64,000 nt of DNA from Halomicronema sp. CCY15110 (GTDB lineage: Bacteria > Cyanobacteriota > Cyanobacteriia > Phormidesmidales > Phormidesmidaceae), in the NCBI RefSeq assembly GCF_016888165.1, contig NZ_JACSWC010000395.1, positions 1 through 64,000 of the forward strand, in the 5' to 3' direction. Below, in pieces: positions 9,086-46,537 of the stretch (the first letter of the stretch is position 1; each line of letters opens with the position of its first letter). The translations under genes were made by a program, and so were the position numbers. The notes under the pieces were generated by a model that worked only from the letters and a program-made list of their open reading frames with translations, was not told the DNA's origin and ran no database searches.

Positions 9086-9306
9086 GGCAGGTCACCCGCT
9101 ACAGTCACAACTCCGATAGCTCACGATAGTTCCTCTGTACTTTCAATCTTGCCGCAGGATTTCCGCCGCTGGTAAAAATCCACATGAAGCTTTGAAATCG
9201 ACCTCGAAGCAGAACTTCAATTCCAATTTATATAATCGAATAGCATTGCAGCCCATGCCGCTAAAACAAAGGTAAGCCGCTCTTATCCGCGAACAATCAT
9301 GCATGT

Positions 9307-12300
9307 ATGAGTCCAACTTTCTACCTTCCACGTATCCTCTCAAGCCATGACAGCACATACACCGAAACGGAGTTACTTGCCGCTTCAAGTTACGTGGTCG
9401 TCTTGGCTGAACCTGGTGGTGGAAAAACTGATCTGATGGGGAGTATTGCTCAACAGCTGGGGACAACGGCCGTTACAGCAAGAAAATTTGCGCACATAGG
9501 AGTAAGTGAAAACAACGTCCCGTTGGTGATTGATGCATTTGATGAGCTGTCAAAGGTTGATGACTCCGGAATCTACAAACTTCTTGCTAAAGCTGAAGCA
9601 ACTAGCCCAAGTCATGTTTACTTGTCGAGCCGATCCAGCGAGTGGGATAACGCTGCAACAAACGCATTCAACGAATTCTTAGGGCATTCACCTCTAGTAG
9701 TTAGGCTACGCGAGTTTGATGAATCGGAACAGAGGGCGATCTTTGAACATCACTTGCCAGGAGAGGACTTCGCGGCGTTTAAGACCGAGATTGCTCGATT
9801 TGACTTGGAAATGCTTCTCCCAAACCCTCAGTTTCTGAAACTGTTTGCTGATGCATATATTGAGAGTGAAAGACACTTCGCCGACAAGCGCTCAATTTTC
9901 TCACAAGCGGTTGAACGTTTGGCGAAGGAGGCAAATCCTTATCTGAAGGGCATTAATCCAACGCTTTCGATCGCTCGAAAGGTAGACATATCATCGGAAG
10001 TTTTCACTAAGCTTTTATTTGCCGGTGCAGAAGGCGTCTGCATAAGCGAAGCCACTGAAAATCGCATGTATCCATTGCTTGCTTCACTATTTGAAAGCGA
10101 AACTGCAGCTGATGCAATTCTGGCAACTCGTCTTTTCAAACCGAGCGACAACGTAGACCAGCATCGTCCCGTACACAAGATTGTCGCTGAATACTGTGCA
10201 GCGGACTATCTCACGAAGCGGATAGCAGACCCAGCGGACCCGCTGACATTGCCCAAGTGCCTGCCTATTATTGCTCCAAACTTGACAGTGCGAGATGAAT
10301 TGCGAGGGCTGCTAGGTTGGATGGCAGCATTAGGTAACAAACGCATACAAGAATCTGCCATTAATCTTGATCCCTACGGAGTGCTAGCGAATGGCGATCC
10401 TTCCCAGCTTGACCATTCGTCAAAGCGCCTACTTATACATCGGCTAATAGAAGTCGAGGAACAAGATCCTTACTTTCGAAGGGGGGATTCCTGGCGTCGG
10501 TTCAGCGTTGCGGGGTTCTTCACCCAAGATGTTGTGGATGAGATCAAACCCCTTCTCACATCTGGAAGTGACGGGCACTTGCGTAATCTGATCCTTGAGC
10601 TTTTGAGAGGATCACCAGCAATCAAGCACTTGAGAGGTGAGTTGCGCCAACTTACTCTCACACCGACTGAAAGCGAACATACTCGTTGGCTAGCGAATAG
10701 ATGTTTGCTCGACGTTGACGGTGATGTCCGTCGCTCTGACTTGGAAACCCTTATTTCTGAGGCCAGTAGTACTTCTCTCAGTATTGCGGCTGAGATCATT
10801 GAAACTCTAGGCCCGGAAACGTTCGAACGGGCTTATCTCGCAGAGTTTCTTCACGTATGCTCAAAGCTTTATCCGAACCACCGAAGAAGACATAGGCGTG
10901 CAATAGGAGATCGCTATTTCCTGAAAAAGTTCATCGACGGGCTAGACATTGCGACTATCGAGTGGCTCTTAGATGACTTGACCAAAAATTTAGTATGCGT
11001 ATGCGGAAAGAAGCCTTATGAATGCGACTGCCGAAACGGTATAAGCAAAATCGTAGGATCAATGTTGGATCGCTACTTCGAGTTGGCAAAACCTCCCTTT
11101 GATCCATTACGGGTTTGGCAATGGGTCAGGAACCTGATCTTCCATGAGCAAAAAGGTATCCACCAAAGCAAGGCGGTTCAGGTCCTTCAAAACGATAATG
11201 AGCTGCACAAAGGCATTATTGCTCATGTATTTGGAACACTGACTGACCGTGACGAGATCTACGAAACAAAGTTCACTTGGCATAGGTTCCACTGCCACAA
11301 CGGTCTTATTTTTCGAGGAGATGATTACAAATTCATAGTTGATCTGGCGTTCGAAACCGACAACCCAGATTTATGGGCATGTTTCATGGAAGGACATAGA
11401 TACTATCAAAGTAAGGAAGAGCGAGGCCCAAATGACTTGCGGCGTCACATGCGTAAACAGGCACTGAAAAAAACCTTGTTCATGCAAGAGTGGGCCAAGA
11501 TCAACAGGGCTACAGCAAAACAGTTCTATTTAGAAAAACGTGAGTGGCGTGTCAGGCCGACTCGCAAGATGAAGCACCGCCGCAGGAAGCAAGACGAAAT
11601 ACGAGCAGCAAACATCGAGTACTTTCAGGACAACAGGAAGCTTATCGAAGCTGGCCGCGATTGGAACTGTTTAGTTCTCTTTGCAAAGTTGGTTCTAATG
11701 CATTCGGACGATATCGAGCAAGAGGTTAACGACAAAAACCTCGTTCAAACTTCGCTCAGAAATTGTCTTGATTTTATAGCTCCGCATGTTCCCAACCTGA
11801 GTGAGATTGCGGAACTACGGCGTACTTCAAAAATTGATGACTCAGAGATTATTCTTTATGCAGCATGCTTAGAGATTATGCGCTTTAAAGGCAATCTAGA
11901 AGAAGTTAATCTCCACCTACTGAGAGCACTGCGTATTGGTATGTGCATCTCCTACGATGCTGTCTCCAATGAAAATTACGATGCACTATTAGAGGAAGTT
12001 AATCGTTTACTTTTTTCTGATAGCGATAGTGCAGAGAATTTCCTTCGTCATTACATTGAGCCACAACTGGCACAGTCAGGATATGCACATCCAGAGCTTT
12101 GGTTCTTGCGTAGAGAGGATACCTTTCGTCATTTACGTGCCACGCTATCGCTTGAATGGCTTCAACGTTTTCGTGAATTGGAACTGAATCCACTCAATAC
12201 ACTTTTCGAGATTGCAGCTCAACATAGTAACCGGGATAAGTTGAAAGAAATCATTGCTGAGCGTTGCACAGAGTTTATGTCCGCTTGGCCCAATCAGACT

Positions 12301-13332
12301 GAAAATGAAGATATCGAACGCAAACGTACTTTCTGGCTAGTGCGCGCGTGGTACTTTCTCGACGATACACCTGAAACATACTGGAACTGGCTTAAAGCAG
12401 ATAAAGATACTGTGCTCCTACTTTACGAGCGGTCTGGACGAATGAGCCCTGGTACTTCTTCCTGGCCCATGCTCACATCAAGCAAGGTAGAAGCCATTCT
12501 GGATGCCTTTATTGGTCAATGGCCCAAGGTAGACCTGCCGAACCACTGGGGTTCGGGCAGCTCTAAAGGAGAAAATGCATATCGCTTTTTGACCGACGTG
12601 ATCTGGTCTATCAACTCAGACGATCCCGATGATGCTATCCCTGTCCTCGAAAGGCTTCTTGCTGATTCGCGCTTCGCCGACTTACACAATGACCTGAAGA
12701 GCATACATGCCAGTCAAGTACGAAATAAAGCACTTAGGGATTTTGAACCGCCAACACCACAAGAAATCGTAAATCACCTGGATCGCAATGCAGTGGTTAC
12801 TGTAGAAAGCTTGCGGCAACTTGTTATCGAAGAGCTTCAATACTTCCAGAAGGATATTGATGGCGGGGAGTTTAACTTCGCCAACCTATTTTATAAAAAT
12901 GGTGATCGACTAGATGAAGAAAGGTCTAGAGATGTTATTGCTGGATACCTTAAATCAAGGCTTGAGCCGCAAGGTATTTCTGTTGTGAAGGAGCATGAGC
13001 TAAAGGACGCAAAGCGAAGTGATTTCACTGTAACTAAAATGATTGTCAGTAAAAAACTTTTGCTTGTTACAGAGGTTAAGGGGCAGTGGCATAAAGATCT
13101 ATATACTGCCGCCTCCACTCAGCTGAATGAACTCTACTCGATACACCCAGACGCAGCGCAACAGGGCATTTTCCTTGCAATTTGGTTTGGCACAGGCGAA
13201 AAGGTTGCTGGACGAAAAAACCACGGCATCGAAAGTGCTCAGGAGCTTCAAATCAGCATTGAAGCAGCACTACCGCCAACGCTCAGAGGACTCATTGATG
13301 TGTTTGTTCTGGACGTGTCCAAATCCAAATAA
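9307..13332 (+). CDS. Large NACHT/STAND-like NTPase with C-terminal PD-(D/E)XK nuclease; candidate defence protein
   Basis: The product is 1341 residues. The P-loop lies almost at the N-terminus (EPGGGKT, 35-41), followed by a Walker B of NACHT type (LVIDAFDEL, 73-81) and an arginine-ending strand (VYLSSRSSEW, Arg109). Near residue 300 VHKIVAEYCAADYL matches the helix after the NACHT winged-helix region. Some 800 residues of helical sequence follow, with a CVC...CDC cysteine cluster (about 560-570). The last 140 residues read as a PD-(D/E)XK nuclease: Glu1204/1205, Asp1239 in KRSDF, E1256-V-K1258, Gln1272. The gene contains no GCGATCGC octamer while the flanks have many, suggesting transfer. 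No partner gene is adjacent. Anti-phage function is inferred from architecture; the gene family was not identified. Confidence 0.8.
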   Translation: MSPTFYLPRILSSHDSTYTETELLAASSYVVVLAEPGGGKTDLMGSIAQQLGTTAVTARKFAHIGVSENNVPLVIDAFDELSKVDDSGIYKLLAKAEATSPSHVYLSSRSSEWDNAATNAFNEFLGHSPLVVRLREFDESEQRAIFEHHLPGEDFAAFKTEIARFDLEMLLPNPQFLKLFADAYIESERHFADKRSIFSQAVERLAKEANPYLKGINPTLSIARKVDISSEVFTKLLFAGAEGVCISEATENRMYPLLASLFESETAADAILATRLFKPSDNVDQHRPVHKIVAEYCAADYLTKRIADPADPLTLPKCLPIIAPNLTVRDELRGLLGWMAALGNKRIQESAINLDPYGVLANGDPSQLDHSSKRLLIHRLIEVEEQDPYFRRGDSWRRFSVAGFFTQDVVDEIKPLLTSGSDGHLRNLILELLRGSPAIKHLRGELRQLTLTPTESEHTRWLANRCLLDVDGDVRRSDLETLISEASSTSLSIAAEIIETLGPETFERAYLAEFLHVCSKLYPNHRRRHRRAIGDRYFLKKFIDGLDIATIEWLLDDLTKNLVCVCGKKPYECDCRNGISKIVGSMLDRYFELAKPPFDPLRVWQWVRNLIFHEQKGIHQSKAVQVLQNDNELHKGIIAHVFGTLTDRDEIYETKFTWHRFHCHNGLIFRGDDYKFIVDLAFETDNPDLWACFMEGHRYYQSKEERGPNDLRRHMRKQALKKTLFMQEWAKINRATAKQFYLEKREWRVRPTRKMKHRRRKQDEIRAANIEYFQDNRKLIEAGRDWNCLVLFAKLVLMHSDDIEQEVNDKNLVQTSLRNCLDFIAPHVPNLSEIAELRRTSKIDDSEIILYAACLEIMRFKGNLEEVNLHLLRALRIGMCISYDAVSNENYDALLEEVNRLLFSDSDSAENFLRHYIEPQLAQSGYAHPELWFLRREDTFRHLRATLSLEWLQRFRELELNPLNTLFEIAAQHSNRDKLKEIIAERCTEFMSAWPNQTENEDIERKRTFWLVRAWYFLDDTPETYWNWLKADKDTVLLLYERSGRMSPGTSSWPMLTSSKVEAILDAFIGQWPKVDLPNHWGSGSSKGENAYRFLTDVIWSINSDDPDDAIPVLERLLADSRFADLHNDLKSIHASQVRNKALRDFEPPTPQEIVNHLDRNAVVTVESLRQLVIEELQYFQKDIDGGEFNFANLFYKNGDRLDEERSRDVIAGYLKSRLEPQGISVVKEHELKDAKRSDFTVTKMIVSKKLLLVTEVKGQWHKDLYTAASTQLNELYSIHPDAAQQGIFLAIWFGTGEKVAGRKNHGIESAQELQISIEAALPPTLRGLIDVFVLDVSKSK

Positions 13333-13371
13333 GGTGGCTTCTAGATCGACAATAATAGCGGCCTCTAGGCC

Positions 13372-14052
13372 CTATGAATCCGTGGGCAAGTCACCAAACT
13401 GTTGACGATAGCGCGCCAGTTCCGCTTCCAGCTCTTCCCGGCGTTGGCGCTCACTGGTTAATTGAGCCGTTGATTCCGTCAGGGCCGCCGACAATTCATC
13501 GGGAATGAGTAACTTCTCCCCCGTGTCCAGCCGATAGAAGCCGATCAGTGACTCTTCAACCGCCAGTCGCAGGTTGAGGCGCTGGCTAATGCTGTCGGTG
13601 ATCGGCACATAGTCCTCGCCTTGCAGACGATCGCCCCGCAGCTGTTCCGGTATCCACTCCCCCTTGGGGTCAAACAGCCAATATTCCTCCACCTCTAACT
13701 GGGCATACAGCGTCTTTTTATAAGACTGGTCTTGTTCCTGGGTGCCCGCTGAGGTCATTTCGAAAATGACGGCAGGGGTTTGGCCCTCCTCCCAAATTTT
13801 GTAGTTGTCGCGGCCACCGGGCTCGACCTCAAAAATCACCATGACATCCGGGGCGACTCGCAGCTTAGGAAAGCCCTGAGCGTAGTAAAGAAACTGATTG
13901 CTCAACACGGTGGCCTGCTGCCCCGCCAAATACTGGCGCAGTAACTCCAGGGTGATGAGCATGGCGTAGAGATGCCCAAAGGTTTCGGCCCCAGGTTCAC
14001 CGTCTGTCGAAGGGTAGCTAGCCGCAGAGAGGTGGGGAGAGATGGCGGTCAT
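13372..14052 (-). CDS. Uma2 family (DUF820) putative endonuclease
   Basis: The product is 226 residues with the Uma2 fold of the PD-(D/E)XK superfamily: APDVMVIFEV, then AVIFEMTSAGT, then KKTLYAQLEVEEYWLFDPKGEW. The candidate catalytic residues are Asp of APDV and Glu of FEMTS. The C-terminus adds a Glu/Arg-rich coiled coil (RQRREELEAELARYRQQF), common in this cyanobacterial subfamily. The family is heavily expanded in cyanobacteria and its function is unsettled. The gene is divergent from a second Uma2 gene, across 172 bp. Confidence 0.85.
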   Translation of the reverse strand: MTAISPHLSAASYPSTDGEPGAETFGHLYAMLITLELLRQYLAGQQATVLSNQFLYYAQGFPKLRVAPDVMVIFEVEPGGRDNYKIWEEGQTPAVIFEMTSAGTQEQDQSYKKTLYAQLEVEEYWLFDPKGEWIPEQLRGDRLQGEDYVPITDSISQRLNLRLAVEESLIGFYRLDTGEKLLIPDELSAALTESTAQLTSERQRREELEAELARYRQQFGDLPTDS

Positions 14053-14224
14053 AGTCGTTCTGGAGGCTCTGAGTCTAGTTTATCGGACCCGTTGGCGAAG
14101 GGATTTGTGTGCGGGGAGAGGGGGAGCAGGGGAGAGGGGGCGATCGCCGCCAACCCCCAACCAGTCCAGAACTGTGCAGTAGGATCAGGTTTAGGTTTAC
14201 TATTTGCCGCTGAGGAGCTATGCC

Positions 14225-14779
14225 ATGCGGACCCTTACCCAATGGTCGGTCGCCGATTATCAACAGATGCGGGAGCTCGGCATCCTCGATCGCCGTCGCT
14301 GCGAACTTATCCAGGGAGAAATTTGGGACATGGCTCCAGAGGGGCAATTTCATCGCTTTGTTAATGACCGAGGGGCAGAATATCTCAGGCGCAAGCTTCA
14401 AGGCAAAGCGAAGATCTTTGAGGCTCATCCCATTACACTGTCAACATCTGAGCCGCAGCCAGATATCGCGATCGTGCGGCTACCCGATACTCGTTATCTC
14501 GCCCACCATCCTTACCCTGAAGATATTTATTGGCTAGTAGAAATTGCCGATACGACCTTGACCTACGACCTGGAAACCAAGCGTCGGGTTTATGCCGAAG
14601 CGGGGATTGCGGAGTATTGGGTGATTGACATCGCGAACCGGCAGCTGGTCGTGTTTAAGGATGGTCAAAATGGTGATTTTTTGATCCGTCAGACCGTGAG
14701 TGAGGGCGTGCTGTATCCGATCGCGTTTCCAGCGATGGCGATCGCGGTTGACCAACTCATCAGCATTCCTGAGCCATGA
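14225..14779 (+). CDS. Uma2 family (DUF820) putative endonuclease
   Basis: The ATG at 14225 is preceded by GAGGAG seven bases upstream, so I prefer it to the in-frame TTG at 14204. The product is 184 residues: ELIQGEIWDMAPEGQFH, PDIAIVRLPD, YWLVEIADTTLTYDLETKRRVYAEAGIAEYWVID, all standard Uma2 motifs with the Asp and Glu of the PD-(D/E)XK core. No toxin or antitoxin partner is visible. It ends at the shared hairpin before thiC, with which it converges. Confidence 0.88.
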   Translation: MRTLTQWSVADYQQMRELGILDRRRCELIQGEIWDMAPEGQFHRFVNDRGAEYLRRKLQGKAKIFEAHPITLSTSEPQPDIAIVRLPDTRYLAHHPYPEDIYWLVEIADTTLTYDLETKRRVYAEAGIAEYWVIDIANRQLVVFKDGQNGDFLIRQTVSEGVLYPIAFPAMAIAVDQLISIPEP

Positions 14780-14815
14780 AAAAAGGCTGGATGAAAGTGC
14801 TTCCATCTCAGCCTT
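14779..14815 (-). terminator. Rho-independent terminator of thiC
   Basis: On the minus strand AAGGCTGAGATGG pairs with CATCCAGCCTT (one bulge) and is followed directly by TTTTTT. It lies about 30 bp past the thiC stop. The stem also ends the convergent Uma2 gene. Confidence 0.85.
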
Positions 14816-14843
14816 AATCGTGATGATCTGAGGGCTCTGAGAA

Positions 14844-17854
<3,011 letters not shown>

Positions 17855-34576: not shown

Positions 34577-37500
34577 TTACACAGGCAAGACAAACCGCCC
34601 TTCAAAGCGACCCGCCGCTTCAAAATGCTGGAAGCCATTGGGCAGGGCCCCAGAGTTGATCGCATTAGCAACATCAGGATTGAAGCCGCGATAGCTTGAT
34701 TCTGTATATGCTGCACTGCCTCGCCGCCCTTCAAACTGGCCAAATTGCTGGAAGTGGTCGAACGCGCTAGCTTGAGTGACGCCAGCCCTAACCAAATCGG
34801 GGTTGCTGTTCAGATAGAACCGCGCATCAAACAGCGTTAGTGCCGGCAAACGGTTGTCATCCACTCCAAATTTCACATAATGCTCGAAGGCACTCGCTAG
34901 CCCCCCACTGTTCACCGCAGAGTTGACATCTGGATTGTTGAGCAAATAATCGCTCTGGTCAAAGAAGGCGCTGGGGTCGCGACCTTCGCGGTGACCACTA
35001 GTGAGGAAATGCGATAGACCGCTACTAAGTGCGCCACTGGCGATCGCGTTACGAACATCCGCGTTATTCGCACGATAGAACGATTCGTTGTACAACACAC
35101 TGGGGTTGCGACCTTCGTTAATGCCGGAGGTCACAAAGTGCTGGAAACCAGAGCTGAAGGTCGAGCCCACCAGGCGAGCGACATCCGGGTTTTGATTGAG
35201 GTAGTAGCGCTCATCATAAAGCTGGGCCAGTGGCAACACGTCGATGACATTGCCCGGAGCGACCGCCGCCAGATTGCCCAGCTTCAGTTGCTTCTCATAA
35301 TCAAGGAAGGAGCTGAGCTGCCCTGTTACCTGAATGCTAACAGTGGTGCTGGCCGTTGCCCCCTGATCATCTTTGATGGTGTAGCTAAAGGTATCGTTGC
35401 GAGTTTTGCCCACGGGCAACGCATCAAATACACCGTTTGGATCATAGTTAAAGGTGCCGTTGCCGTTATTGACCAATAGGCCCCGCAAAGCAGATGTATT
35501 CACACTGTCTAAGGTGACGGCTCCGCCCTCAGGATCAAAATCATTGGTCAACACGTTCGCAGTTCTAAAGGCGACGGATTCTGTCGTTCTGAAACCCGTG
35601 CCACTATTGGCTACTGCGATCGGTGGGTCGTTGACGCCTGTGAGGGTGATTTCAACTGTGCCATCGACCGTACCGCCGTTACCATCACTGACTGTGAATG
35701 TGATGTTTTCAGTCTCGACTTCACCGCCCAAGAGGCTTACACCCGGCGTGTAGGTCAGGGTCTCGTTAGTGAACGTGACGGCACCAAAGGTGCCATTAGT
35801 GACTTTGCTAATGGATAGGACATCACCAAAGTCGATATCAGTCGCACCCGAATTCACTAAGGCATTGAGCGTAATAGGTGTCCCCTCGGTGGTTGCCGCA
35901 GTCAACGAAGGAGTCGTGAGCGTGGGCAGATCATTCTTGCCCTCAATCGTAATGGTCACCGTCCCCGTTGCGGACTTGTTCCCCGAGGGGTCATTGTCCT
36001 CAACGGTGTAGGTAAAGGTATCAGTATCGGTGGCACCGACAGCCAACGATTGGAACGCTGTCCCTGGGTCGTAATTGATCAAGTTACTGACAATTTCAAC
36101 CGTGGCCCCTTTGGTGGTAGTCACCGGGCCCGTTGCCCCATTAATTTTAGTGACCTGCAAGGCGGTGCCACTGTCGTCCGTGTCATTCGCCGTCACGTTG
36201 AGCCCGGTGAGCGGCGTCTCTTCATCAGTCGTGAAGCTATCAGCCACGGTGACTGGCGCATCGTTGACTGGGGTAAAGGTGATGTTGCCACTCGCAACTG
36301 AAACGTTGACGGTGTCGGTGCCATCAACGCCGTCGCTGACGGTCAGCGTAAAGCTGGGGGGCACCTCGCTATTTTTGTCCGGTTGGAAGCTGATCTCGCC
36401 ATCGATGACGTCTTGTTGTGTAAACGTGGTGGTGGAAACTAGAGCTGGCGGTGTCGCTGTTGAATCAAATACCAAGAACTCGCCACCGGTTAGGTTACTG
36501 ACGGTATAGGTCAGTTCAGTTGCGGCGTTATCCACATCCGCAGTTTCGAGGATCGTGAGATCGAGCTCCAACAGTGTCCCTTCCACAATGGGGAAGTTAG
36601 CGACTGTGATCTCGGGTGCATCATTCACCGGGAACTGTGACAAGTCGATGGTGGCCGCTTCGGGAGCAGCAAGGGCAGCCCCATCGCGATCTATGACGTT
36701 GACCTTGTAGCTAGGCGGTGTTTCGTCGCCATCGTCTTTGAAGGTGATCTCACCAGCGGCTACTTGCGCGATCGAGAACTCGCCCAAGTTATCCCCAGCT
36801 GCTGTCGTATCAAGGGCGACGTCGTTGAGGAAGAAGGTGCCACCGGCAACATCAGTAATCTCAAAGGTGAGTTGAGTGACAAGGTCTTCGCGATCGCTCG
36901 CAAATATGTTGTCGGTAGTGAGGGTGATCTCTTGCCCCTCAATCGGGCTCAGGGTGTTTTTGGTAAGCTCTGGTGCTTCATTTGCCAACTGGAAGGCAGG
37001 CGTCACGGTTTGGGTCAGGGTATTTGCCCCTGTACCGCCGTTGTTGTCTTGCAGTGACAGCGTGAAGGTTGGTGCTACCTCGCTGTCATCGTGGACAAAA
37101 GTAACCCGGTTATTGTCGATGTCATCTTGGGTAAAGGTGGTCGCATTGCTGCCATTCACCTGGAAGTTAGCGTTGGCAATGCTATCGACGGTGTAAACCA
37201 GCTCTACTGGGTTCGTCGTTTCTTCGTCGGTGACAAAGATTTGGACTTCGCCTGGCGCTGCCGTCACCCCACTTACCACAACAGTAGTGCCACCCTCGAC
37301 CACCGTCGGGAAATTGATGATAAACGGATCGGGGGTGGGCAGGTCGTTGACGGGTGTAAAGTTGGCCGCCACAGCAAAGTTCAGATCGTTTGGATCGCCT
37401 GGATTATCATCTGAGTTGATGGTGGTGGTGATGGCGGGCGTGACTCCAACGGCTTCGTCTGTGAGCGTCAGGCTAAACGTTGGCGCATTGTCATCTAAGC

Positions 37501-40500
37501 CATCGTCTACAAATGTGACAGTGCCCGCAATGACATCGGCTTGGGTAAAGGTTGTCTGAGTAGTGCCTTTGACCTGGAATTCGCCGCCAGTTACGGCATC
37601 AACTGTATAGACAAGAGCACTTGAAGCCGATTCTTCGTCAGTTACCGCCAAAATCGAAGTATCGATTGTCACGGTTCCTTCTTCGGTGATAGCAAGAGGG
37701 TTAATCGTGACCACAGGGGCGTCATTGACTGCGGTCAAGGTGCCCGTATAGTCGTCGCTGGTGCTGCCACCCTCGGTATCCAATGCGGTTAGCGTGTAGG
37801 CTGGCGCTACGTTAGAGCCATCGTGCTTAAAGGCAATATCGCCATCTTTGATCTGTACCCAGGTGAAGTCGGTGATGGCTGAGGTCGTATTCGTACTCAG
37901 GGCAAAGAAGCCGCCCTGCACATTCGAAACTTCAAAGGTTAAGTCAGCCTGAGCCGTCTCACCGACTTCATCAGCTGCGTCAATTTGCGTCAGCCCCAGG
38001 CCCAGAATGCCATTTTCTTTGATGGTGAAATCGAACGCGGCTAGATTAGGCGTCGTCGTGGTATCGGCAGCGAGACCAATCAGAGTAGGGTTGTCGTTCT
38101 CACGGTTAAACGCGATCGCGGCTGACTCAACCCCGGAAGTTAGCGCCCCGTCACTCACTTCAACGTCGTAAGCGGGGGCACTATCTGAGCCGTCATGGGT
38201 AAAGCTGACTAGCCCTTCGACGACCTGCCGCAGGGTAAATTCGGTTGCGGCTGCGCCGTCAACATCAAAAGCACCATTAGTAAGGTTAGTGATGGAGAAC
38301 TTTAGGTCGAGGTTGGGCGAATCTAAGTCTTCGGCACTGAGGTTGCTGGTAGTGAACTTGAAGGTTTGCCCCTCATCAATGGTGAGGGCATTGGCCAGCA
38401 AGGTGGGAGCATCAGGAGTGTTGACAAAGGTGCTCGTCAAGTCAACTTCCAGGGTGGTGGACTGGACTGGCGAGGGCACGCCATTGTCGCTCACCGTGAC
38501 GGTATAGCTGGGCGCAAACTCACTGTTGTCGTGCTGGAACGCAACACTGCCGAGGTTAAGGTCTTGCTGAGTAAAGGTGTCAGAAACCGCTAGGGCAGCG
38601 CCATTCAAGAAGAAGGTGCCTTTATTGACCGCGTCGATGCTGTAGGTCAGCAGGGCCGGATCGCCGGTCGTGCCGTCGAAGGTTTCTTCATCCACGAAAC
38701 TCAACTGCGTGGCACCATCAATGGTGACTTTTTGGCCTTGTTGAATGGCAAATAGCCCTTCAGTCGTTGCTGGTGCTAGCTCAGGCGCATCGTTGATGGG
38801 GGTAAAGTCGATAATGGCGTCGCTGGCGATCGAAATTCCCTGAGGTGTGCCATTGTCTTTAGCCGTGAGGGTATAGGTTGGCGCATCGTTGCTGCCTCCC
38901 TGCTTGAAGACCACTTCACCATCAATGACATCTTGTTGGGTAAAGGTTGTTAGCGGAGTGGCAAAAGCCGTATCTGTAATATCAAAGAAAGCACCGTTGG
39001 CCAGGTTGCTGATGGTATAGGTCAGGTTGGCCGGGCCACTCTCGGGATCGACGACTTTTAAGTCATTGATAGTCAGCGTTACAGCCTCGTCTTCGGCAAT
39101 GGTGAGGGTATTGGCTGTGATTTCAGGCGCATCATTAACGGTGGTGAGGGTCGCCGTGAAGTTTTCGAGATCAGTGCTTTCACCATCAGTCACTTCTAGG
39201 GTGAAGGTTGGCTGAGTCTCGCTACCGTTGTGCCTAAAGACAATCTGTTGGCCATCCAGCTGAGCCTGGGTAAAGGTCGTGATGGCGGTTTTGGTATCGG
39301 TGATGCTGGCAAAGAAACCACCCGTCACGTTGGACGCTGTAAATTCGATGTCCTCGGGCGCAGTGTCAGGATCGGTCACCGTAATATTTGGGAAACCGTC
39401 GGCTGGGTTGTTCAGCACCAGGGTGCTGCCTTCTTTGATCGCAAAGGGATCATTGCTGCCGCCTACGACTCCATCGCTGTCAGGGGTGAGGACGGGCGCA
39501 TCATTGACTGGAATCAGCGTGACGTTGACCGTTGACACCGGGGACGTGGCGTCGCCTAAGGCTGCACCCGCATCGGCTCCCGTGTCAGTCACGGTGACGT
39601 CAAAGCTCGGGGCTTTGTTGTCAGTGGGGGTTTCACCCGTATCGTCATGGGTAAAGGTGACCGTCTCTTGAACGAGGTCGAGCAGGGTGAAGGTGGTTTT
39701 ATTAAAGTTGCCGTTGACGACGTTGGTAACGTTGAATTCAAGATCCAGCGCCTTGGTCTCAACATCGATCGCACTCAGGTTGGCTGTCGTCAGGGTGACC
39801 GTTTTGCCTTCGGTGACGGTGAGATTTTTGTTGACCAGTTCTGGTATGTCGTTGACAGCAGTGAAGGTGAAGTCAGTGGCATCAACGGTGAGGGTGACTT
39901 GCTCAGCAGAGGGAGAACCGTTGTCATCCAGCGTGACGGTAAAACTGGGCGCGGTTTCACCACTGTGGACAAAGTCCACGAGATTATCAATGACATCCTG
40001 CTGCGTAAAGCTAGTGACATCTTTCCCACCAATCTGGAAGGTGCCGTTGGTGGTGGCATCAACGGTGTATTCCAGCTCTGCTGACGTTTGCAGTCCAGCA
40101 GCGACCTCCGCATCGGTGACGGCAAAGAGCCCAGCGGTAATGTCGATCGCGGCGTCTTCGGTAATGGCGATCGGCGTGCTAATCGTCAGCGTCGGCGCAT
40201 CGTTGACCGGGGTAAAGGTGATGTTGGCATCAACCGGAGCTAACGCAATGGGCGTCGGAGTCACTCCAGCTCGATTATCTTCAACCGTAATGCTAAAGGA
40301 AGGCTCGATTTCGCCGTCATAGTTGAAGGTCACAGTCCCCGCGACCACATCCGCTAGGGTAAACGTCGTGGCTGAAAAGGCCGCGTTGATCGCGGCATCG
40401 ACCAGCGCATTCCCGGTGTTGCCTGCTACCGTAATCGAAATTTCGCTATTGAGGCTGTCAACATCTTCAATGTTCAGCACATCGGTCGTAATGACCAGTT

Positions 40501-43500
40501 CCTCGCCTTCGGTAATGGCGAACTCGTTAGTGATAATTTCGGGCGCGTCGTTGACGCCATTGACGGTGCCGCCGCCCGTGGCCGTGGCGGTGTTGTCGCC
40601 GTCGGTGACGCTGATGTTATAGCTGGGAGCGGTTTCAGTGCCGTCGTTTTCAAAGAAGACGCGACCCAGGTTGATGTCATTCTGAGTGAATGTCGTGACT
40701 GGGTTGGCATTACCAACCAGGAAGAAGTCGCCCCCTTGCACATTGGAGACGGTGAATTCGAGGTCGCGATCGTCAAAATCGCCATCGGTGGCTCTAATGA
40801 TCAATCGGCTGATCGTAACGTTGCCATCTTCTTGCACGGTAAAGCCGGGCAAGATGCCGTCACTCGGCTCAAAAACGACAGGCGTTGCCGTGGGGTCAAC
40901 CGGCTCTAAGAAAACGGGGGTATCGTTGACCTCCGTAAAGGTGACATTGCCTGCCACAGTCGTTTCAGCGGCAACAACCGCATCTTGATCATTAGCCGTA
41001 ATGCTAAAGATGGGGGCCGTTTCACCGTCATAAAGGAAGGTCACATCCCCATTGACGATATCGGAGCGATTGAAGGTGATGCCGTCGGTCGCGTCGGTAT
41101 CACCGGCAAAGATAAAGCTACCGGCATTGGCTCCCTTAATGGTGAACTCAATGTCGGGGGCTGGGGTCGCCGCATCGATATCGATCGCATCCAACACCTT
41201 CGTGGTGACCAGTAACTCTTCCCCTTCAGTCACCACAAAGTTGTTCTTTAAGATAATGGGCGGGTCATTGACCGTCGCACCGATCGCCCCGGTGATAGTC
41301 TGCGGCGGCGACGATAGGCCCTCACCATCCGTTACGGTCACGGTGTAAACCGGGGCAATTTCCGTGCCGTCATGCTGGAAGAAGACGCCCCCAGCGTTCA
41401 CCTGGGCCAGCGTAAAGCTCGTACTCGCGACCCCACTGACAATAAAGTTGCCGCCTTCAATATTCGTCAGGGCAAAAGTCAGATTAGCGGCCCCTGACTC
41501 TTCATCGGTGGCCCCCAGGTTGGCACTGGTGATGGCCACCTGGCCACCTTCATCCACCGTGATGGGCGTCAGCGCATCAACGGGGTCAACCGTCAACGGC
41601 GTGCCATCTAAAACCGGTGCATCATTCACCGCCGTGAAATCGGCAATGTTACCCGCCGCTTTGTCCGTCAAGCCGCCCGGATCTTTTACTTCAACGGTGA
41701 AGGTGGGCTCACCGTCATCGTTGGCATTCTCATATAAGAAGGTGACCTTGCCCTGGAAAATATCGGACAGGGTAAAGGTCGGGTTAGCAACCCCGTTGAG
41801 CAGAAAACTACCGGCATCAGTTCCGGTAATCGTGAAGGTGAGATCAGCCGGATTGGTATTGTCTTCGTCGATCGCGTTCAACACGTTGCCATCGATCAAG
41901 AGTTCCTGATCTTCCACCACAGTGAAGTTATTAACCGTGATTTCGGGCGCATCATTGACCGGGATAACGATGCCGCCGCCCGTAGCGGTGGCAGTGCTGT
42001 CGCCATCGGTGACGCTGATGTCATAGCTAGGAGCAGTTACCGTGCCGTCATTCACAAAGAGGACACGGCCCAGGTTGATGTCGCCTTGGGTAAAGGTGGT
42101 GACTGGAGTGGTGCTGCCCACTAAGCGGAAGCTGCCCCCTGCCACATTGGAGACGGTGAAGGTGAGGTCGCGATCGTCAAAGTCGCCATCGGTCGCCCGA
42201 ATAATCAGGCGATTAATCGCGACGTTGCCGCCCTCTTGCACGGTAAAGTCAGGCAAGATGCCGTCGCTAAGTTCAAACACGACCGGCGTCACCGCTGGGT
42301 TGACCGGCTCCAAGAAGACTGGCGTGTCGTTGACTTCAGTAAAGTTAACGCTGCCAGCAACGGTGGTTTCAGCTGCACCACCGGCATCTTGGTCGTTGGC
42401 CGTGATGCTAAAGACGGGCGCAGTTTCACCGTCATACAGGAAGGACACATTGCCCGCCACAATGTCGGCACGAGTAAAGGTGGTGGCGGCAACGCCACCA
42501 ACCAAGAAACTACCCGCATTCGCACCGGTAATGGTGAATTGGATATCAGGCGCAGGGGTTGCTGCATCAACATCGATCGCATCCAACACGCTCGTCGTAA
42601 CCAGGAGTTCTTCCCCTTCCACGACATCGAAGTCATTCACCAAAATGAGCGGCGGATCATTAACCGTCGCGCCGATCGCCCCAGTGATGGTCTGCGGCGG
42701 CGACGATAGGCCATCGCCATCCGTTACGGTCACGGTGTAAACCGGGGCAATCTCCGTGCCGTCATGCTGGAAGAACACCGCCCCCGCATTTACCCGAGCC
42801 AGCGTAAAGCTCGTACTCACGACCCCATTGACAATAAAGTCGCCGCCTTCAATATTCGTCAGGGTAAAAGTCAGATTAGCGGCCCCTGACTCTTCATCGG
42901 TGGCCCCCAGGTTGGCGCTGGTGATGGCCACCTGACCACCTTCATCCACCGTGATGGGCGTCAGCGCATCAACAGGGTCAACCGTCAACGGCGTGCCATC
43001 TAAAACCGGCGCATCATTCACCGCAGTAAAGTCAACGATATTGCCCGCCGCAATGTCGGTTAGAGCGGTCGGCGTAGTATCGTCAGCCAGCTTAATCGTA
43101 AAGCTGGGGGCACCGGCATCGTTGGCATTCTCATATAAGAAGGTGACCTTGCCCTGGAAGATATCGGACAGGGTAAAGGTCGGGCTGGCAACCCCGTTGA
43201 GCAAGAAGCTGCCCGCATCGGTACCGGTGATGGTGAAGGTGAGGTCAGCCGCGAGCGTGTCGTCGTCGATCGCATTCAACACGCTGCCATCAACTTTGAG
43301 GACCTGATCTTCCACCACGGTGAAGCTATTGACCGTGATATCGGGGCGATCGGCAACGGGCGCAATCCCCACGTTGTAGACCAGCGCTTGAAAGCCGCCA
43401 TCGCCATCGGAGACCTGTAACGTAAAGGTATCGTCGTTAAAGGTCGCGCCATCCCCATCGCCATCAAAGTTGTCGTCAGGCGTATAGGTAAAGTTTTGCA

Positions 43501-46500
43501 GGCCATTGCCCGTGCTCGCCCCCAACGCCAGTGAGCCATTGCTGGGACCAGAGATAATATTCCAGGTCAGGGTATCTTGGGTGCCAACATCGCTCGCTTT
43601 GACGGTGAAATCGAAGGGGGTATCTTCAGTGACGGGGCCTAAATTAGTGGGTGATGCCGCTGGATCGACCAGGACCGGAGCGACATTCGCGACCTCAATC
43701 TCAGTCGTAAAGGCATCAGTGGCTCCCTCGGCATCAGTCACGGTGACTTTGACCGAATAGGTGCCCGTGCCCTCATCTAAGTAGGTGTGCGAGAGCCCGG
43801 CAAAGGAAACAGTAGTCTGATCCGTATTCGTAAAGATGATGGCGTCAGTATCGTTGAACGTTTCAACGGTGCCGTCACCCCAGTCCACGGTGATGGAATG
43901 AACGTCGTCTAAATCGACCTCGGTGGAGTTGTCGATATCATCAAAGCTGCCGCTAAGGGTGACGGTATCGCCTTCATTAATGCTGGTGACATCAGGCGTG
44001 ACCGCGAGGTTGATCGGCGCATCATTTACCGGGTTGACATTGACCCCAACGCTGGCAAACGAGATGCCGCCGTCCTCATCAATGACCTTAACGATAAAGT
44101 TGTCACCCCCAAAATAATCCGGGTCAGGCGTGTAAGAGAGGGTCTGAGTGTCCCCCGTGCCAGTGGTCACAAAGCTAGCGGTGCCCTGAGTCGGCGCGGT
44201 ATCGATACTCCAGGTAAAGGTCTCAGAACTGATATCCGACGCTGTCAGGGTCAGCGTGCCTGCATCGTCTTCATCGATGGTGAGGAAGCTACTGGCCGGC
44301 GTCACTTCAGGCGGCGTGTTATCAATGGTGATCGACTTAGTGGCGATCGCCGTCTTGCCAAAGCTATCGACCACGGTGGCCGTGATCGAGGCGGCACCAT
44401 TGATGTTGAACTCATGACCCGTGTTGAAGGAATAAGTTTGGGTCTTAGTATTGAACTTTAAATCTGACGAATTTAAGACTGTCGGGGTCGTGCCGTCGTT
44501 CCAGTCGATAGTGACGGTAAAGGTGTCACCGACATCCGGATCGACAAAACTGCCGCTGAGGGTGATGGACTCACCTTCGTCGATGGTGGCAGCGGACGTG
44601 GCTAGCTTGAAATTGCTCGGGGCATCCGCCACGGGTGTCACATTAGCGGTGAAGGCGATCGTGCTCGTGCCGCCATCGCCATCATCCACCTTGATTTCAA
44701 AGGTTTCACTACCGTTGAAATTAGCCAGCGGCGTGTAGGTGAAAAACTGTGTCGCTGCTGCTCCCGCAGGGGGCGTAAGGGTACCGCCCGACGATGGCGC
44801 GGTGACACTCCAGGTAAACGGATCGGCAGCCCCGGCTGGGTCAGTGGCCGTGAGAAAGAAGCTCTTAGTGCCATCTTCGGCTAGAGAAAACGTCGGGGTA
44901 ATGGAAGGGGTAACGGTGGGAGCCACATTCACCACCGAAATATTCCGAATTTCGGTGTCAGTCAGACCACCAGAGTCAGTGACTTCGACTGAAATATTAC
45001 CCGCTGTGAACGCCGTATCATCGGCATAGGAATGGGAAGCTGAGAAGGCCCCACTGCTATTCGCCGACACTGTGCTCGTTTTGCCATCCCCCCAAGTAAT
45101 TTCAACCGTCGCGGTATCGTTAATATCGGGGTCGTCAATTTGCCCCGTCAGAGTAAAGGTTTGCCCTTCGCTGACCGTCCCAGGTGCGCTGAGGCTGGTG
45201 ATCGTGGGAGCCTCATTGACATCGGTCACCTGCACAAAGACTGATTCGGTGTCCGTGTCAGCGCCATTGGTGGCCGAAACGGTCAGCTCATAGTTTTGCG
45301 GAAAAGTCTCGAAGTCGAGGTCATCGGCATCGTTGACTGTGATTGCACCTGTCGTCCCATCGATCGCAAACGCTAACGTGCCATCACTATCATTGTCAGG
45401 ATTACCACCCGTAATCTCCCAGGTGTCGACTGTCACAGCATTATCAATGGCGACGGTGCCCACCACGTCGCCATTATTGGCTAGCTCAGATACAGGAAAT
45501 AGCTGGGCGGCTGTAATCTGCGGCGGCACGTCAAGTTGAATCGTGATACCAGCGGTGGCGTTAGCCGTTTGCTGAAAGCCCGTGCCATCGACCGCAAAGT
45601 AGTAAATGACCCCATTCTGCGCTTCAAAGCTCGCGCTGGTGGTCTGGCTACCCGAGGCGCTCAAATCGTCGGCAACACGAGTCAGACTCCCAAAGGTAAA
45701 GGTGGGATCAGTCGCAGCGATCGTGCTGCTATATACCGCCAGGGCAGTGCCAATGGTGCTGCCCTCAGTGTTCACGTTGACTAGGCCATCCACATTAGAG
45801 GTCCAAGTCCACCAGACGGAGTCGTTGGAAAGATTGTTCGCCCCCGGAGTCGTATCGTGAATCGGCTCACCGACCTGGTTATTCGCCAGGGCGTTGCCAA
45901 TTGCATCGGGCGTACCTGGCGTGAGGGCGATCGCATTTTGAATATCATTATTGGCCGCCAAGATGCCGGGATAGGTGGATACGGCGGCAGCGGTGAGGAG
46001 ATTGCGCCGCTCGACTTCGCCCCAAAAGGCGTCGAGAGTCCAGTTGCCGCCGCGATCGGCGTGGCCAAGCAAGTGAGTGGATGCAGCAATATTGGCGTGG
46101 GTCAGCGTATGGATGGCAGACAAGAACTCAGTGCCAGCATCGCCCGCGGCGACCTGGCAACCGTAAAAGTGGATATCCTTAACGGACGTCTGGGCCGTCC
46201 ACTGTTGAAGGCGATCGCGATAACGCGGCAACGTTGACAAGCTGAGTTCCGCATTGCCCAACCAGAGCTGCCCCGGCGCACCGTGAGCCACCACAAAGAC
46301 CTCGGTCGCATCGGCACGGGCCTGCAGAGCCGCAGCAATGTACGCCACACCATCACTATCGGGAGGCAAAATCAAGGTTTCCGCATCGAGGGCAATTCCG
46401 GTAGCTAGCTGCAAAGGAGCCTCAATACCCGCATCAACAAAAACAATAGACTTCGTTTTATTCGCCATGATTCGCATCCCAAAAAAATCTACAACCTGCA

Positions 46501-46537
46501 CACCGAACCCACTCTTTTTACTCAAACGCTTACTCAT
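34577..46537 (-). CDS. Giant DUF4347-cadherin/CSPG-repeat surface protein (about 3986 residues)
   Basis: Possible starts are ATG 46537, 46477 and 46468 (MANKTKSIVFVDAG); the last gives a typical DUF4347 N-terminus. Order: DUF4347 (about 25-190: VFVVAHGAPGQLWLGN, IHFYGCQVAAGDAGTEF, STHLLGHADRGGNWTLDAF); a PPC-like jelly roll (about 195-340); a cadherin domain (DLDFETFPQNYELTV); alternating PKD-like (VEITWGDGKTSTV) and tandem-95-like domains; twenty CSPG-type repeats; three or four VCBS/tandem-95 domains; five C-terminal NPDV repeats. DUF4347 marks many giant cyanobacterial exported proteins. No classical signal peptide is seen. A 464-residue block (CSPG repeats 1-4) is tandemly duplicated. Probably a secreted Ca2+-binding adhesin or matrix filament; paralogue of the gene at 26051. 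Confidence 0.87.
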   Translation of the reverse strand: MSKRLSKKSGFGVQVVDFFGMRIMANKTKSIVFVDAGIEAPLQLATGIALDAETLILPPDSDGVAYIAAALQARADATEVFVVAHGAPGQLWLGNAELSLSTLPRYRDRLQQWTAQTSVKDIHFYGCQVAAGDAGTEFLSAIHTLTHANIAASTHLLGHADRGGNWTLDAFWGEVERRNLLTAAAVSTYPGILAANNDIQNAIALTPGTPDAIGNALANNQVGEPIHDTTPGANNLSNDSVWWTWTSNVDGLVNVNTEGSTIGTALAVYSSTIAATDPTFTFGSLTRVADDLSASGSQTTSASFEAQNGVIYYFAVDGTGFQQTANATAGITIQLDVPPQITAAQLFPVSELANNGDVVGTVAIDNAVTVDTWEITGGNPDNDSDGTLAFAIDGTTGAITVNDADDLDFETFPQNYELTVSATNGADTDTESVFVQVTDVNEAPTITSLSAPGTVSEGQTFTLTGQIDDPDINDTATVEITWGDGKTSTVSANSSGAFSASHSYADDTAFTAGNISVEVTDSGGLTDTEIRNISVVNVAPTVTPSITPTFSLAEDGTKSFFLTATDPAGAADPFTWSVTAPSSGGTLTPPAGAAATQFFTYTPLANFNGSETFEIKVDDGDGGTSTIAFTANVTPVADAPSNFKLATSAATIDEGESITLSGSFVDPDVGDTFTVTIDWNDGTTPTVLNSSDLKFNTKTQTYSFNTGHEFNINGAASITATVVDSFGKTAIATKSITIDNTPPEVTPASSFLTIDEDDAGTLTLTASDISSETFTWSIDTAPTQGTASFVTTGTGDTQTLSYTPDPDYFGGDNFIVKVIDEDGGISFASVGVNVNPVNDAPINLAVTPDVTSINEGDTVTLSGSFDDIDNSTEVDLDDVHSITVDWGDGTVETFNDTDAIIFTNTDQTTVSFAGLSHTYLDEGTGTYSVKVTVTDAEGATDAFTTEIEVANVAPVLVDPAASPTNLGPVTEDTPFDFTVKASDVGTQDTLTWNIISGPSNGSLALGASTGNGLQNFTYTPDDNFDGDGDGATFNDDTFTLQVSDGDGGFQALVYNVGIAPVADRPDITVNSFTVVEDQVLKVDGSVLNAIDDDTLAADLTFTITGTDAGSFLLNGVASPTFTLSDIFQGKVTFLYENANDAGAPSFTIKLADDTTPTALTDIAAGNIVDFTAVNDAPVLDGTPLTVDPVDALTPITVDEGGQVAITSANLGATDEESGAANLTFTLTNIEGGDFIVNGVVSTSFTLARVNAGAVFFQHDGTEIAPVYTVTVTDGDGLSSPPQTITGAIGATVNDPPLILVNDFDVVEGEELLVTTSVLDAIDVDAATPAPDIQFTITGANAGSFLVGGVAATTFTRADIVAGNVSFLYDGETAPVFSITANDQDAGGAAETTVAGSVNFTEVNDTPVFLEPVNPAVTPVVFELSDGILPDFTVQEGGNVAINRLIIRATDGDFDDRDLTFTVSNVAGGSFRLVGSTTPVTTFTQGDINLGRVLFVNDGTVTAPSYDISVTDGDSTATATGGGIVIPVNDAPEITVNNFTVVEDQELLIDGNVLNAIDEDNTNPADLTFTITGTDAGSFLLNGVANPTFTLSDIFQGKVTFLYENANDDGEPTFTVEVKDPGGLTDKAAGNIADFTAVNDAPVLDGTPLTVDPVDALTPITVDEGGQVAITSANLGATDEESGAANLTFALTNIEGGNFIVSGVASTSFTLAQVNAGGVFFQHDGTEIAPVYTVTVTDGEGLSSPPQTITGAIGATVNDPPIILKNNFVVTEGEELLVTTKVLDAIDIDAATPAPDIEFTIKGANAGSFIFAGDTDATDGITFNRSDIVNGDVTFLYDGETAPIFSITANDQDAVVAAETTVAGNVTFTEVNDTPVFLEPVDPTATPVVFEPSDGILPGFTVQEDGNVTISRLIIRATDGDFDDRDLEFTVSNVQGGDFFLVGNANPVTTFTQNDINLGRVFFENDGTETAPSYNISVTDGDNTATATGGGTVNGVNDAPEIITNEFAITEGEELVITTDVLNIEDVDSLNSEISITVAGNTGNALVDAAINAAFSATTFTLADVVAGTVTFNYDGEIEPSFSITVEDNRAGVTPTPIALAPVDANITFTPVNDAPTLTISTPIAITEDAAIDITAGLFAVTDAEVAAGLQTSAELEYTVDATTNGTFQIGGKDVTSFTQQDVIDNLVDFVHSGETAPSFTVTLDDNGSPSAEQVTLTVDATDFTFTAVNDIPELVNKNLTVTEGKTVTLTTANLSAIDVETKALDLEFNVTNVVNGNFNKTTFTLLDLVQETVTFTHDDTGETPTDNKAPSFDVTVTDTGADAGAALGDATSPVSTVNVTLIPVNDAPVLTPDSDGVVGGSNDPFAIKEGSTLVLNNPADGFPNITVTDPDTAPEDIEFTASNVTGGFFASITDTKTAITTFTQAQLDGQQIVFRHNGSETQPTFTLEVTDGESTDLENFTATLTTVNDAPEITANTLTIAEDEAVTLTINDLKVVDPESGPANLTYTISNLANGAFFDITDTAFATPLTTFTQQDVIDGEVVFKQGGSNDAPTYTLTAKDNGTPQGISIASDAIIDFTPINDAPELAPATTEGLFAIQQGQKVTIDGATQLSFVDEETFDGTTGDPALLTYSIDAVNKGTFFLNGAALAVSDTFTQQDLNLGSVAFQHDNSEFAPSYTVTVSDNGVPSPVQSTTLEVDLTSTFVNTPDAPTLLANALTIDEGQTFKFTTSNLSAEDLDSPNLDLKFSITNLTNGAFDVDGAAATEFTLRQVVEGLVSFTHDGSDSAPAYDVEVSDGALTSGVESAAIAFNRENDNPTLIGLAADTTTTPNLAAFDFTIKENGILGLGLTQIDAADEVGETAQADLTFEVSNVQGGFFALSTNTTSAITDFTWVQIKDGDIAFKHDGSNVAPAYTLTALDTEGGSTSDDYTGTLTAVNDAPVVTINPLAITEEGTVTIDTSILAVTDEESASSALVYTVDAVTGGEFQVKGTTQTTFTQADVIAGTVTFVDDGLDDNAPTFSLTLTDEAVGVTPAITTTINSDDNPGDPNDLNFAVAANFTPVNDLPTPDPFIINFPTVVEGGTTVVVSGVTAAPGEVQIFVTDEETTNPVELVYTVDSIANANFQVNGSNATTFTQDDIDNNRVTFVHDDSEVAPTFTLSLQDNNGGTGANTLTQTVTPAFQLANEAPELTKNTLSPIEGQEITLTTDNIFASDREDLVTQLTFEITDVAGGTFFLNDVALDTTAAGDNLGEFSIAQVAAGEITFKDDGDETPPSYKVNVIDRDGAALAAPEAATIDLSQFPVNDAPEITVANFPIVEGTLLELDLTILETADVDNAATELTYTVSNLTGGEFLVFDSTATPPALVSTTTFTQQDVIDGEISFQPDKNSEVPPSFTLTVSDGVDGTDTVNVSVASGNITFTPVNDAPVTVADSFTTDEETPLTGLNVTANDTDDSGTALQVTKINGATGPVTTTKGATVEIVSNLINYDPGTAFQSLAVGATDTDTFTYTVEDNDPSGNKSATGTVTITIEGKNDLPTLTTPSLTAATTEGTPITLNALVNSGATDIDFGDVLSISKVTNGTFGAVTFTNETLTYTPGVSLLGGEVETENITFTVSDGNGGTVDGTVEITLTGVNDPPIAVANSGTGFRTTESVAFRTANVLTNDFDPEGGAVTLDSVNTSALRGLLVNNGNGTFNYDPNGVFDALPVGKTRNDTFSYTIKDDQGATASTTVSIQVTGQLSSFLDYEKQLKLGNLAAVAPGNVIDVLPLAQLYDERYYLNQNPDVARLVGSTFSSGFQHFVTSGINEGRNPSVLYNESFYRANNADVRNAIASGALSSGLSHFLTSGHREGRDPSAFFDQSDYLLNNPDVNSAVNSGGLASAFEHYVKFGVDDNRLPALTLFDARFYLNSNPDLVRAGVTQASAFDHFQQFGQFEGRRGSAAYTESSYRGFNPDVANAINSGALPNGFQHFEAAGRFEGRFVLPV
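34580..35230 (-). repeat. C-terminal array of five NPDV repeats (giant protein 2)
   Basis: Five units beginning LYDERYYLNQNPDVARLV and ending FQHFEAAGRFEGR. They align unit by unit, and with the preceding KLxNxAAVAPGxVIDxLPLAQ linker, to the array at 26054-26690. Confidence 0.8.
40545..41940 (-). repeat. 1392-bp tandem duplication, second copy (giant protein 2)
   Basis: Landmarks recur at fixed offset: TCTGCGGCGGCGACGATAGG at 41299 and 42691, and GTGCCATCTAAAACCGG at 41601 and 42993, both exactly 1392 bp (464 codons) apart. Toward the ends the offset grows to 1401-1404 bp through small codon-multiple indels. Encodes CSPG repeats 5-8. Confidence 0.9.
41941..43340 (-). repeat. 1392-bp tandem duplication, first copy (giant protein 2)
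   Basis: Directly adjoins the copy at 40545-41940 and encodes CSPG repeats 1-4. Long stretches are nearly identical in DNA, including synonymous sites, so the duplication is recent or kept alike by gene conversion. Confidence 0.9.

What the first reader, a model, noticed from the sequence alone, without database searches (positions are those of the whole stretch)
9307..13332. Single-gene NACHT-like NTPase with C-terminal PD-(D/E)XK nuclease, on HIP1-free DNA
The order is reversed from most bacterial NACHT/Avs proteins, which put the effector at the N-terminus. Here the P-loop starts at residue 35 and the nuclease motif (D1239, E1256-V-K1258, Q1272) closes a 1341-residue protein with about 800 unassigned helical residues and a CxC...CxC cluster. 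The gene has no GCGATCGC octamer in 4 kb, while its flanks have many, consistent with horizontal transfer. This looks like a solitary sensor-NTPase-nuclease defence gene.
Basis: partly seen in the sequence, partly recalled or inferred. Interest (0 to 1): 0.78.

Follow-up and report, generated by a model that had tools for sequence, protein, structure and literature searches.

The report
Known EruA-type NACHT-nuclease antiphage gene
This cyanobacterium carries an intact, horizontally acquired copy of a single-gene anti-virus protein (a sensor-type ATPase fused to a DNA-cutting domain) that NCBI already names EruA, so the finding is real but belongs to a family already on record.

Summary
Window 9307-13332 (+) encodes one intact 1341-residue protein with an N-terminal P-loop NTPase (Walker A K40, Walker B D76/D79-E80), about 850 mainly helical residues, and a C-terminal PD-(D/E)XK nuclease (E1204, E1229, D1239, E1256-K1258, Q1272). 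These residues are near-invariant in 20 aligned sequences, and a modest-confidence model of the C-terminus resembles restriction nucleases. The protein matches NCBIfam NF058535, 'NACHT domain-containing antiphage protein EruA', over its whole length at 1447 bits (cut-off 1000). It is therefore a member of an already named family, which the 2023 PADLOC set and Pfam miss. The paper behind the name was not in the library I could search. Homologues lie on conjugative plasmids and beside CBASS, restriction, Ppl and Abi genes. Foreign origin is supported by low GC (46% against 55%), absence from five congeners, and a position exactly at the junction of two blocks that are apart in a congener. HIP1 absence alone is weak: the window has a longer HIP1-free stretch inside another gene. 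Trigger-activated DNA cleavage is the likely mechanism; it is inferred, not shown. Two other cyanobacterial copies are broken. A CxC..CxC motif marks only the close subgroup.

The parts
9307..13332 (+). eruA gene, 1341-aa NACHT-like NTPase with C-terminal PD-(D/E)XK nuclease
   Evidence: NCBIfam NF058535 antiphage_EruA 1447.5 bits, cut-off 1000, residues 14-1338; intact ORF
9409..9429 (+). Walker A (P-loop) EPGGGKT, residues 35-41, K40
   Evidence: G37, G39, K40 near-invariant
9523..9546 (+). Walker B LVIDAFDE, residues 73-80
   Evidence: D76, D79, E80 invariant
9631..9633 (+). R109, conserved arginine in the SSRSSEW / SCR motif after Walker B
   Evidence: invariant; assignment as a sensor residue is inference
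10207..12783 (+). mainly helical region (residues about 301-1159), candidate sensor; HEAT/ARM-like repeats about 400-600
   Evidence: secondary structure of model, local pLDDT about 75-90 over most of 400-600; weak hits to importin, CAND1, Avs4, NOD2. Residues 761-1159 not modelled
10996..11031 (+). C564xC566...C573xC575, possible metal-binding motif, close subgroup only
12784..13329 (+). C-terminal PD-(D/E)XK nuclease domain, residues 1160-1341; E1204, E1229, D1239, E1256, K1258, Q1272
   Evidence: invariant in 19 rows; model pLDDT 73, pTM 0.76; fold hits mostly restriction enzymes
9197..13371 (.). segment without counterpart in the congener G001, between two syntenic blocks that lie on different contigs there
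   Evidence: blastn of the window against G001 and G005 regions

Best explanation
The gene is an intact, horizontally acquired copy of the single-gene antiphage protein EruA. Most likely the long helical part recognises a phage product, ATP binding by the N-terminal NACHT/STAND NTPase then drives oligomerisation, and this juxtaposes and switches on the C-terminal PD-(D/E)XK domains, which cut DNA (phage, host or both) and stop the infection. Family membership, motif conservation and mobile/defence context are shown here. The sensing, oligomerisation and DNA-cleavage steps are inferred from the architecture and from characterised NACHT/Avs proteins.
For: Full-length match to NF058535 antiphage_EruA, 447 bits over the equivalog cut-off. 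NTPase and nuclease catalytic residues conserved over plasmid and chromosomal homologues of 15-71% identity. C-terminal model resembles PaqCI (prob 0.99), Ecl18kI, BamHI, MspJI, McrC and Hjc. Homologues on conjugative plasmids and beside a CBASS operon (L003), a type II R-M/Vsr set (L001), anti-phage Ppl and Abi (L046), SIR2 (L047) and a TrlF-type ATPase (L044). Patchy distribution: over the cut-off in 2 of 390 genomes of the class, the window's own included; no full-length match in five congeners. Low GC/GC3 and insertion between two synteny blocks.
Against: No phage experiment for this copy, and the paper that named EruA could not be read. Fold matches are weak in E-value (best 5.7e-3) and the models rest on 6-8 sequences. 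The window locus itself is not a defence island; its neighbours are NfeD/SPFH, two Uma2-like genes (weak PADLOC PDC-S03 matches), thiC and a transporter. Two other cyanobacterial copies are broken, so its benefit may be transient.
Confidence: 0.85

Rival explanations
1. The protein acts mainly against plasmids or other invading DNA, or stabilises its own conjugative plasmid, rather than against phage.
For: Most PLSDB homologues are on conjugative plasmids, some beside tra/relaxase genes.
Against: The NCBIfam name says antiphage; chromosomal homologues sit beside CBASS and R-M genes; this copy lies among ordinary chromosomal genes.
Confidence: 0.12
2. It is a degraded or non-functional relic of a defence gene.
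For: The Leptolyngbya sp. PCC 7375 copy is split near its C-terminus by a transposase gene and the G032 copy is broken into two frames.
Against: This copy has an intact 1341-codon frame with every conserved catalytic residue.
Confidence: 0.05
3. A housekeeping P-loop NTPase with an accidental C-terminal motif, not a nuclease.
For: Pfam finds no nuclease domain, even among 19 members; the NACHT hit is below Pfam's cut-off.
Against: Invariant E-E-D-ExK-Q set, restriction-enzyme fold hits, patchy and mobile distribution, EruA equivalog.
Confidence: 0.03

Closest known systems
NCBIfam NF058535, NACHT domain-containing antiphage protein EruA (1318 positions)
   Same: Full length, 1447 bits, well above the equivalog cut-off
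   Different: Nothing that excludes membership; this copy and its close relatives add a CxC...CxC motif absent from the divergent ones
NCBIfam NF058534, antiphage protein HyoA (1430 positions)
   Same: EruA homologues give partial matches of 50-172 bits, so it is a sister family
   Different: Far below its cut-off of 1200; the window protein itself had no listed match at E <= 10
Avs / bacterial NACHT (bNACHT) STAND defence proteins
   Same: P-loop NTPase followed by a long helical sensor region; Avs4 and NOD2 appear among weak fold hits
   Different: Those typically activate an N-terminal effector (stated in PMC13092281); here nothing precedes the P-loop and the effector is C-terminal
PADLOC LmuA (Lamassu nuclease) and other PD-(D/E)XK effectors
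   Same: One relative's C-terminus matches LmuA weakly (E 4e-5, L045)
   Different: No overall homology and no Lamassu partner genes seen

Membership tests
EruA (NF058535) | Score over the curated equivalog cut-off (1000 bits) along the full model | tested here: met
   1447.5 bits, model 11-1318
EruA (NF058535) | P-loop NTPase (NACHT) with Walker A and B | tested here: met
   K40, D76, D79, E80 conserved; Pfam NACHT match E 1.6e-4 but below gathering score
EruA (NF058535) | C-terminal PD-(D/E)XK nuclease (feature seen in homologues, not stated by the family name) | tested here: met
   Invariant residues, fold search
EruA (NF058535) | Antiphage activity | not testable with these tools
   Needs phage challenge
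Avs (AVAST) / bNACHT with N-terminal effector | Effector domain ahead of the NTPase | tested here: not met
   P-loop begins at residue 35
HyoA (NF058534) | Score over cut-off of 1200 bits | tested here: not met
   Not listed for P0001 at E <= 10; relatives 50-172 bits

The most novel reading that the evidence does not exclude
The close EruA subgroup (40% identity or more, with CxC...CxC) is a distinct variant whose cysteine cluster is a metal-binding or redox-sensitive trigger element absent from other EruA proteins, giving it a different sensing mode.
Probability: 0.15. Interest if true: 0.4.

Novelty: new member of a known kind. Interest (0 to 1): 0.3.

Why it matters
It documents an intact EruA in a cyanobacterium, shows that the effector-last layout is a conserved family trait rather than a one-off, and lists residues to mutate (K40; D1239, E1256, K1258; C564-C575). 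It also shows that the PADLOC 2023 models miss this family, so genome surveys based on them undercount it.

Tried and rejected
Pfam, PADLOC, PHROGs and sequence search of the PDB gave no assignment of the whole protein. Literature: no open paper on antiphage EruA or HyoA was found; the 'EruA' paper found (PMC12839154) concerns an unrelated E. coli regulator. No relative in IMG/VR with the peptide patterns used, one distant, divided relative in phage records (MT835554), none by near-identity DNA search in E. coli. No direct repeats of 7 bp or more were found between the two edges of the insert. HIP1 absence was rejected as the main argument for transfer.

Full report
The ORF at 9307-13332 (+) is intact, starts with ATG and encodes 1341 aa. 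It is the only full-length copy in the genome. To ask whether they are more than chance, 19 homologues were collected from GTDB contigs, plasmids and related cyanobacterial genomes and aligned. Walker A K40, Walker B D76, D79 and E80, R109, and the C-terminal E1204, E1229, D1239, E1256, K1258 and Q1272 are near-invariant at 15-71% identity. In the C-terminal alignment of 19 rows the six nuclease residues are fully invariant. The CxC...CxC cluster is kept only in the close subgroup (P0001, L001, L002, L003, L006, L037, L038).

Identity. NCBIfam gives one decisive answer: NF058535, antiphage_EruA, an equivalog model, 1447.5 bits against a cut-off of 1000, covering residues 14-1338. Plasmid homologues from Vibrio, Phaeobacter, Paracoccus, Agrobacterium and Bradyrhizobium also pass that cut-off; those from Pantoea and a second Vibrio score about 775. 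A sister model, HyoA, catches the divergent relatives weakly. Pfam sees only a sub-threshold NACHT, and PADLOC of 2023 has no model for it. The source paper for EruA is not in the searchable library, so what was shown experimentally for EruA is not known to me.

Structure. A model of residues 1160-1341 from six sequences (pLDDT 73, pTM 0.76) has the helix-strand order of a restriction-endonuclease-like core. Its PDB matches are mostly PD-(D/E)XK enzymes: MspJI, PaqCI, McrC, EcoO109I, Ecl18kI, BamHI, Hjc; best E 5.7e-3, PaqCI probability 0.99. That is supportive, not conclusive. A model of residues 1-760 is of low confidence overall (pLDDT 64), with a helical-repeat part at about 400-600 that resembles HEAT/ARM proteins; Avs4, a STAND protein and NOD2 are among the weak hits. 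Residues 761-1159 were not modelled.

Context of homologues. Several lie on conjugative plasmids. Chromosomal L003 (Pelagimonas MAG) has a complete CBASS set (cyclase, E1-E2, JAB, SAVED-type endonuclease effector) directly upstream, and L001 (Pseudomonas lundensis) has a type II methyltransferase, Vsr and a restriction enzyme directly downstream. On Pantoea plasmids the gene sits near anti-phage Ppl and an Abi gene or a TrlF-type ATPase, and in Bradyrhizobium near a SIR2 gene. The window's own locus is not an island.

Transfer. Gene GC is 46.2% against 54.6% for the window, GC3 45% against 57-76% for eight nearby genes. None of the five congeners has a full-length match; over the cut-off it occurs in 2 of 390 genomes of the class. 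In congener G001 the left flank (to 9196) and the right flank (from 13372) are both conserved at 81-87% identity, but on different contigs, so the gene fills the join of two blocks that are apart there. G005 also holds the two blocks in separate places about 0.9 Mb apart. HIP1 absence is a poor argument: the largest HIP1-free stretch of the window (38112-44343) is inside a 3986-aa repeat gene.

Fate in relatives. The copy in Leptolyngbya sp. PCC 7375 (L004 = G006) is cut near residue 1294 by a 410-aa transposase ORF (IS256-like by eye), and that in G032 is split into two frames. The window copy is intact.

Mechanism. Shown: conserved NTPase and nuclease active sites in one chain, effector last, no constant partner gene across loci, mobile and defence-linked context. 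Inferred: phage sensing by the helical part, nucleotide-dependent oligomerisation, nuclease activation, and DNA cleavage as the antiviral step. Verdict: a sound first-stage call of a real defence gene, ordinary in the sense that the family is already named.

Noticed in passing
38112-44343 (gene 34577-46537, - strand): The longest HIP1-free stretch of the window lies inside one 3986-aa gene of tandem cadherin-like/VCBS-type repeats with a DUF4347-like start (by eye); repeat coding, not transfer, may explain the lack of HIP1.
   Followed up: partly
9196 and 13372: Synteny junction: left and right flanks are each conserved in congeners G001 and G005 but apart from one another there, so the gene marks a rearrangement breakpoint (or an assembly join).
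   Followed up: partly
L004:13897-15200: A 410-aa transposase ORF (13920-15152, -) interrupts the nuclease end of the EruA copy in Leptolyngbya sp. PCC 7375; the remaining C-terminal part follows downstream.
   Followed up: yes
L069:4931-8954 (G032): EruA copy broken into two frames near residue 550; adjacent downstream ORFs match helicase parts of DISARM/Dpd-type proteins weakly.
   Followed up: partly
13372-14052 (-) and 14204-14779 (+): Two Uma2-like genes next to eruA match PADLOC candidate PDC-S03 weakly; such genes are multi-copy in the genus and the first is syntenic with thiC in G001, so they are probably unrelated to eruA.
   Followed up: partly
L029, L012, L030, L032: Cyanobacterial proteins of about 1410-1430 aa with the same P-loop and PD-(D/E)XK ends score 227-308 bits to EruA and 140-172 to HyoA, below both cut-offs: a possible third, unnamed branch of this architecture.
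   Followed up: partly
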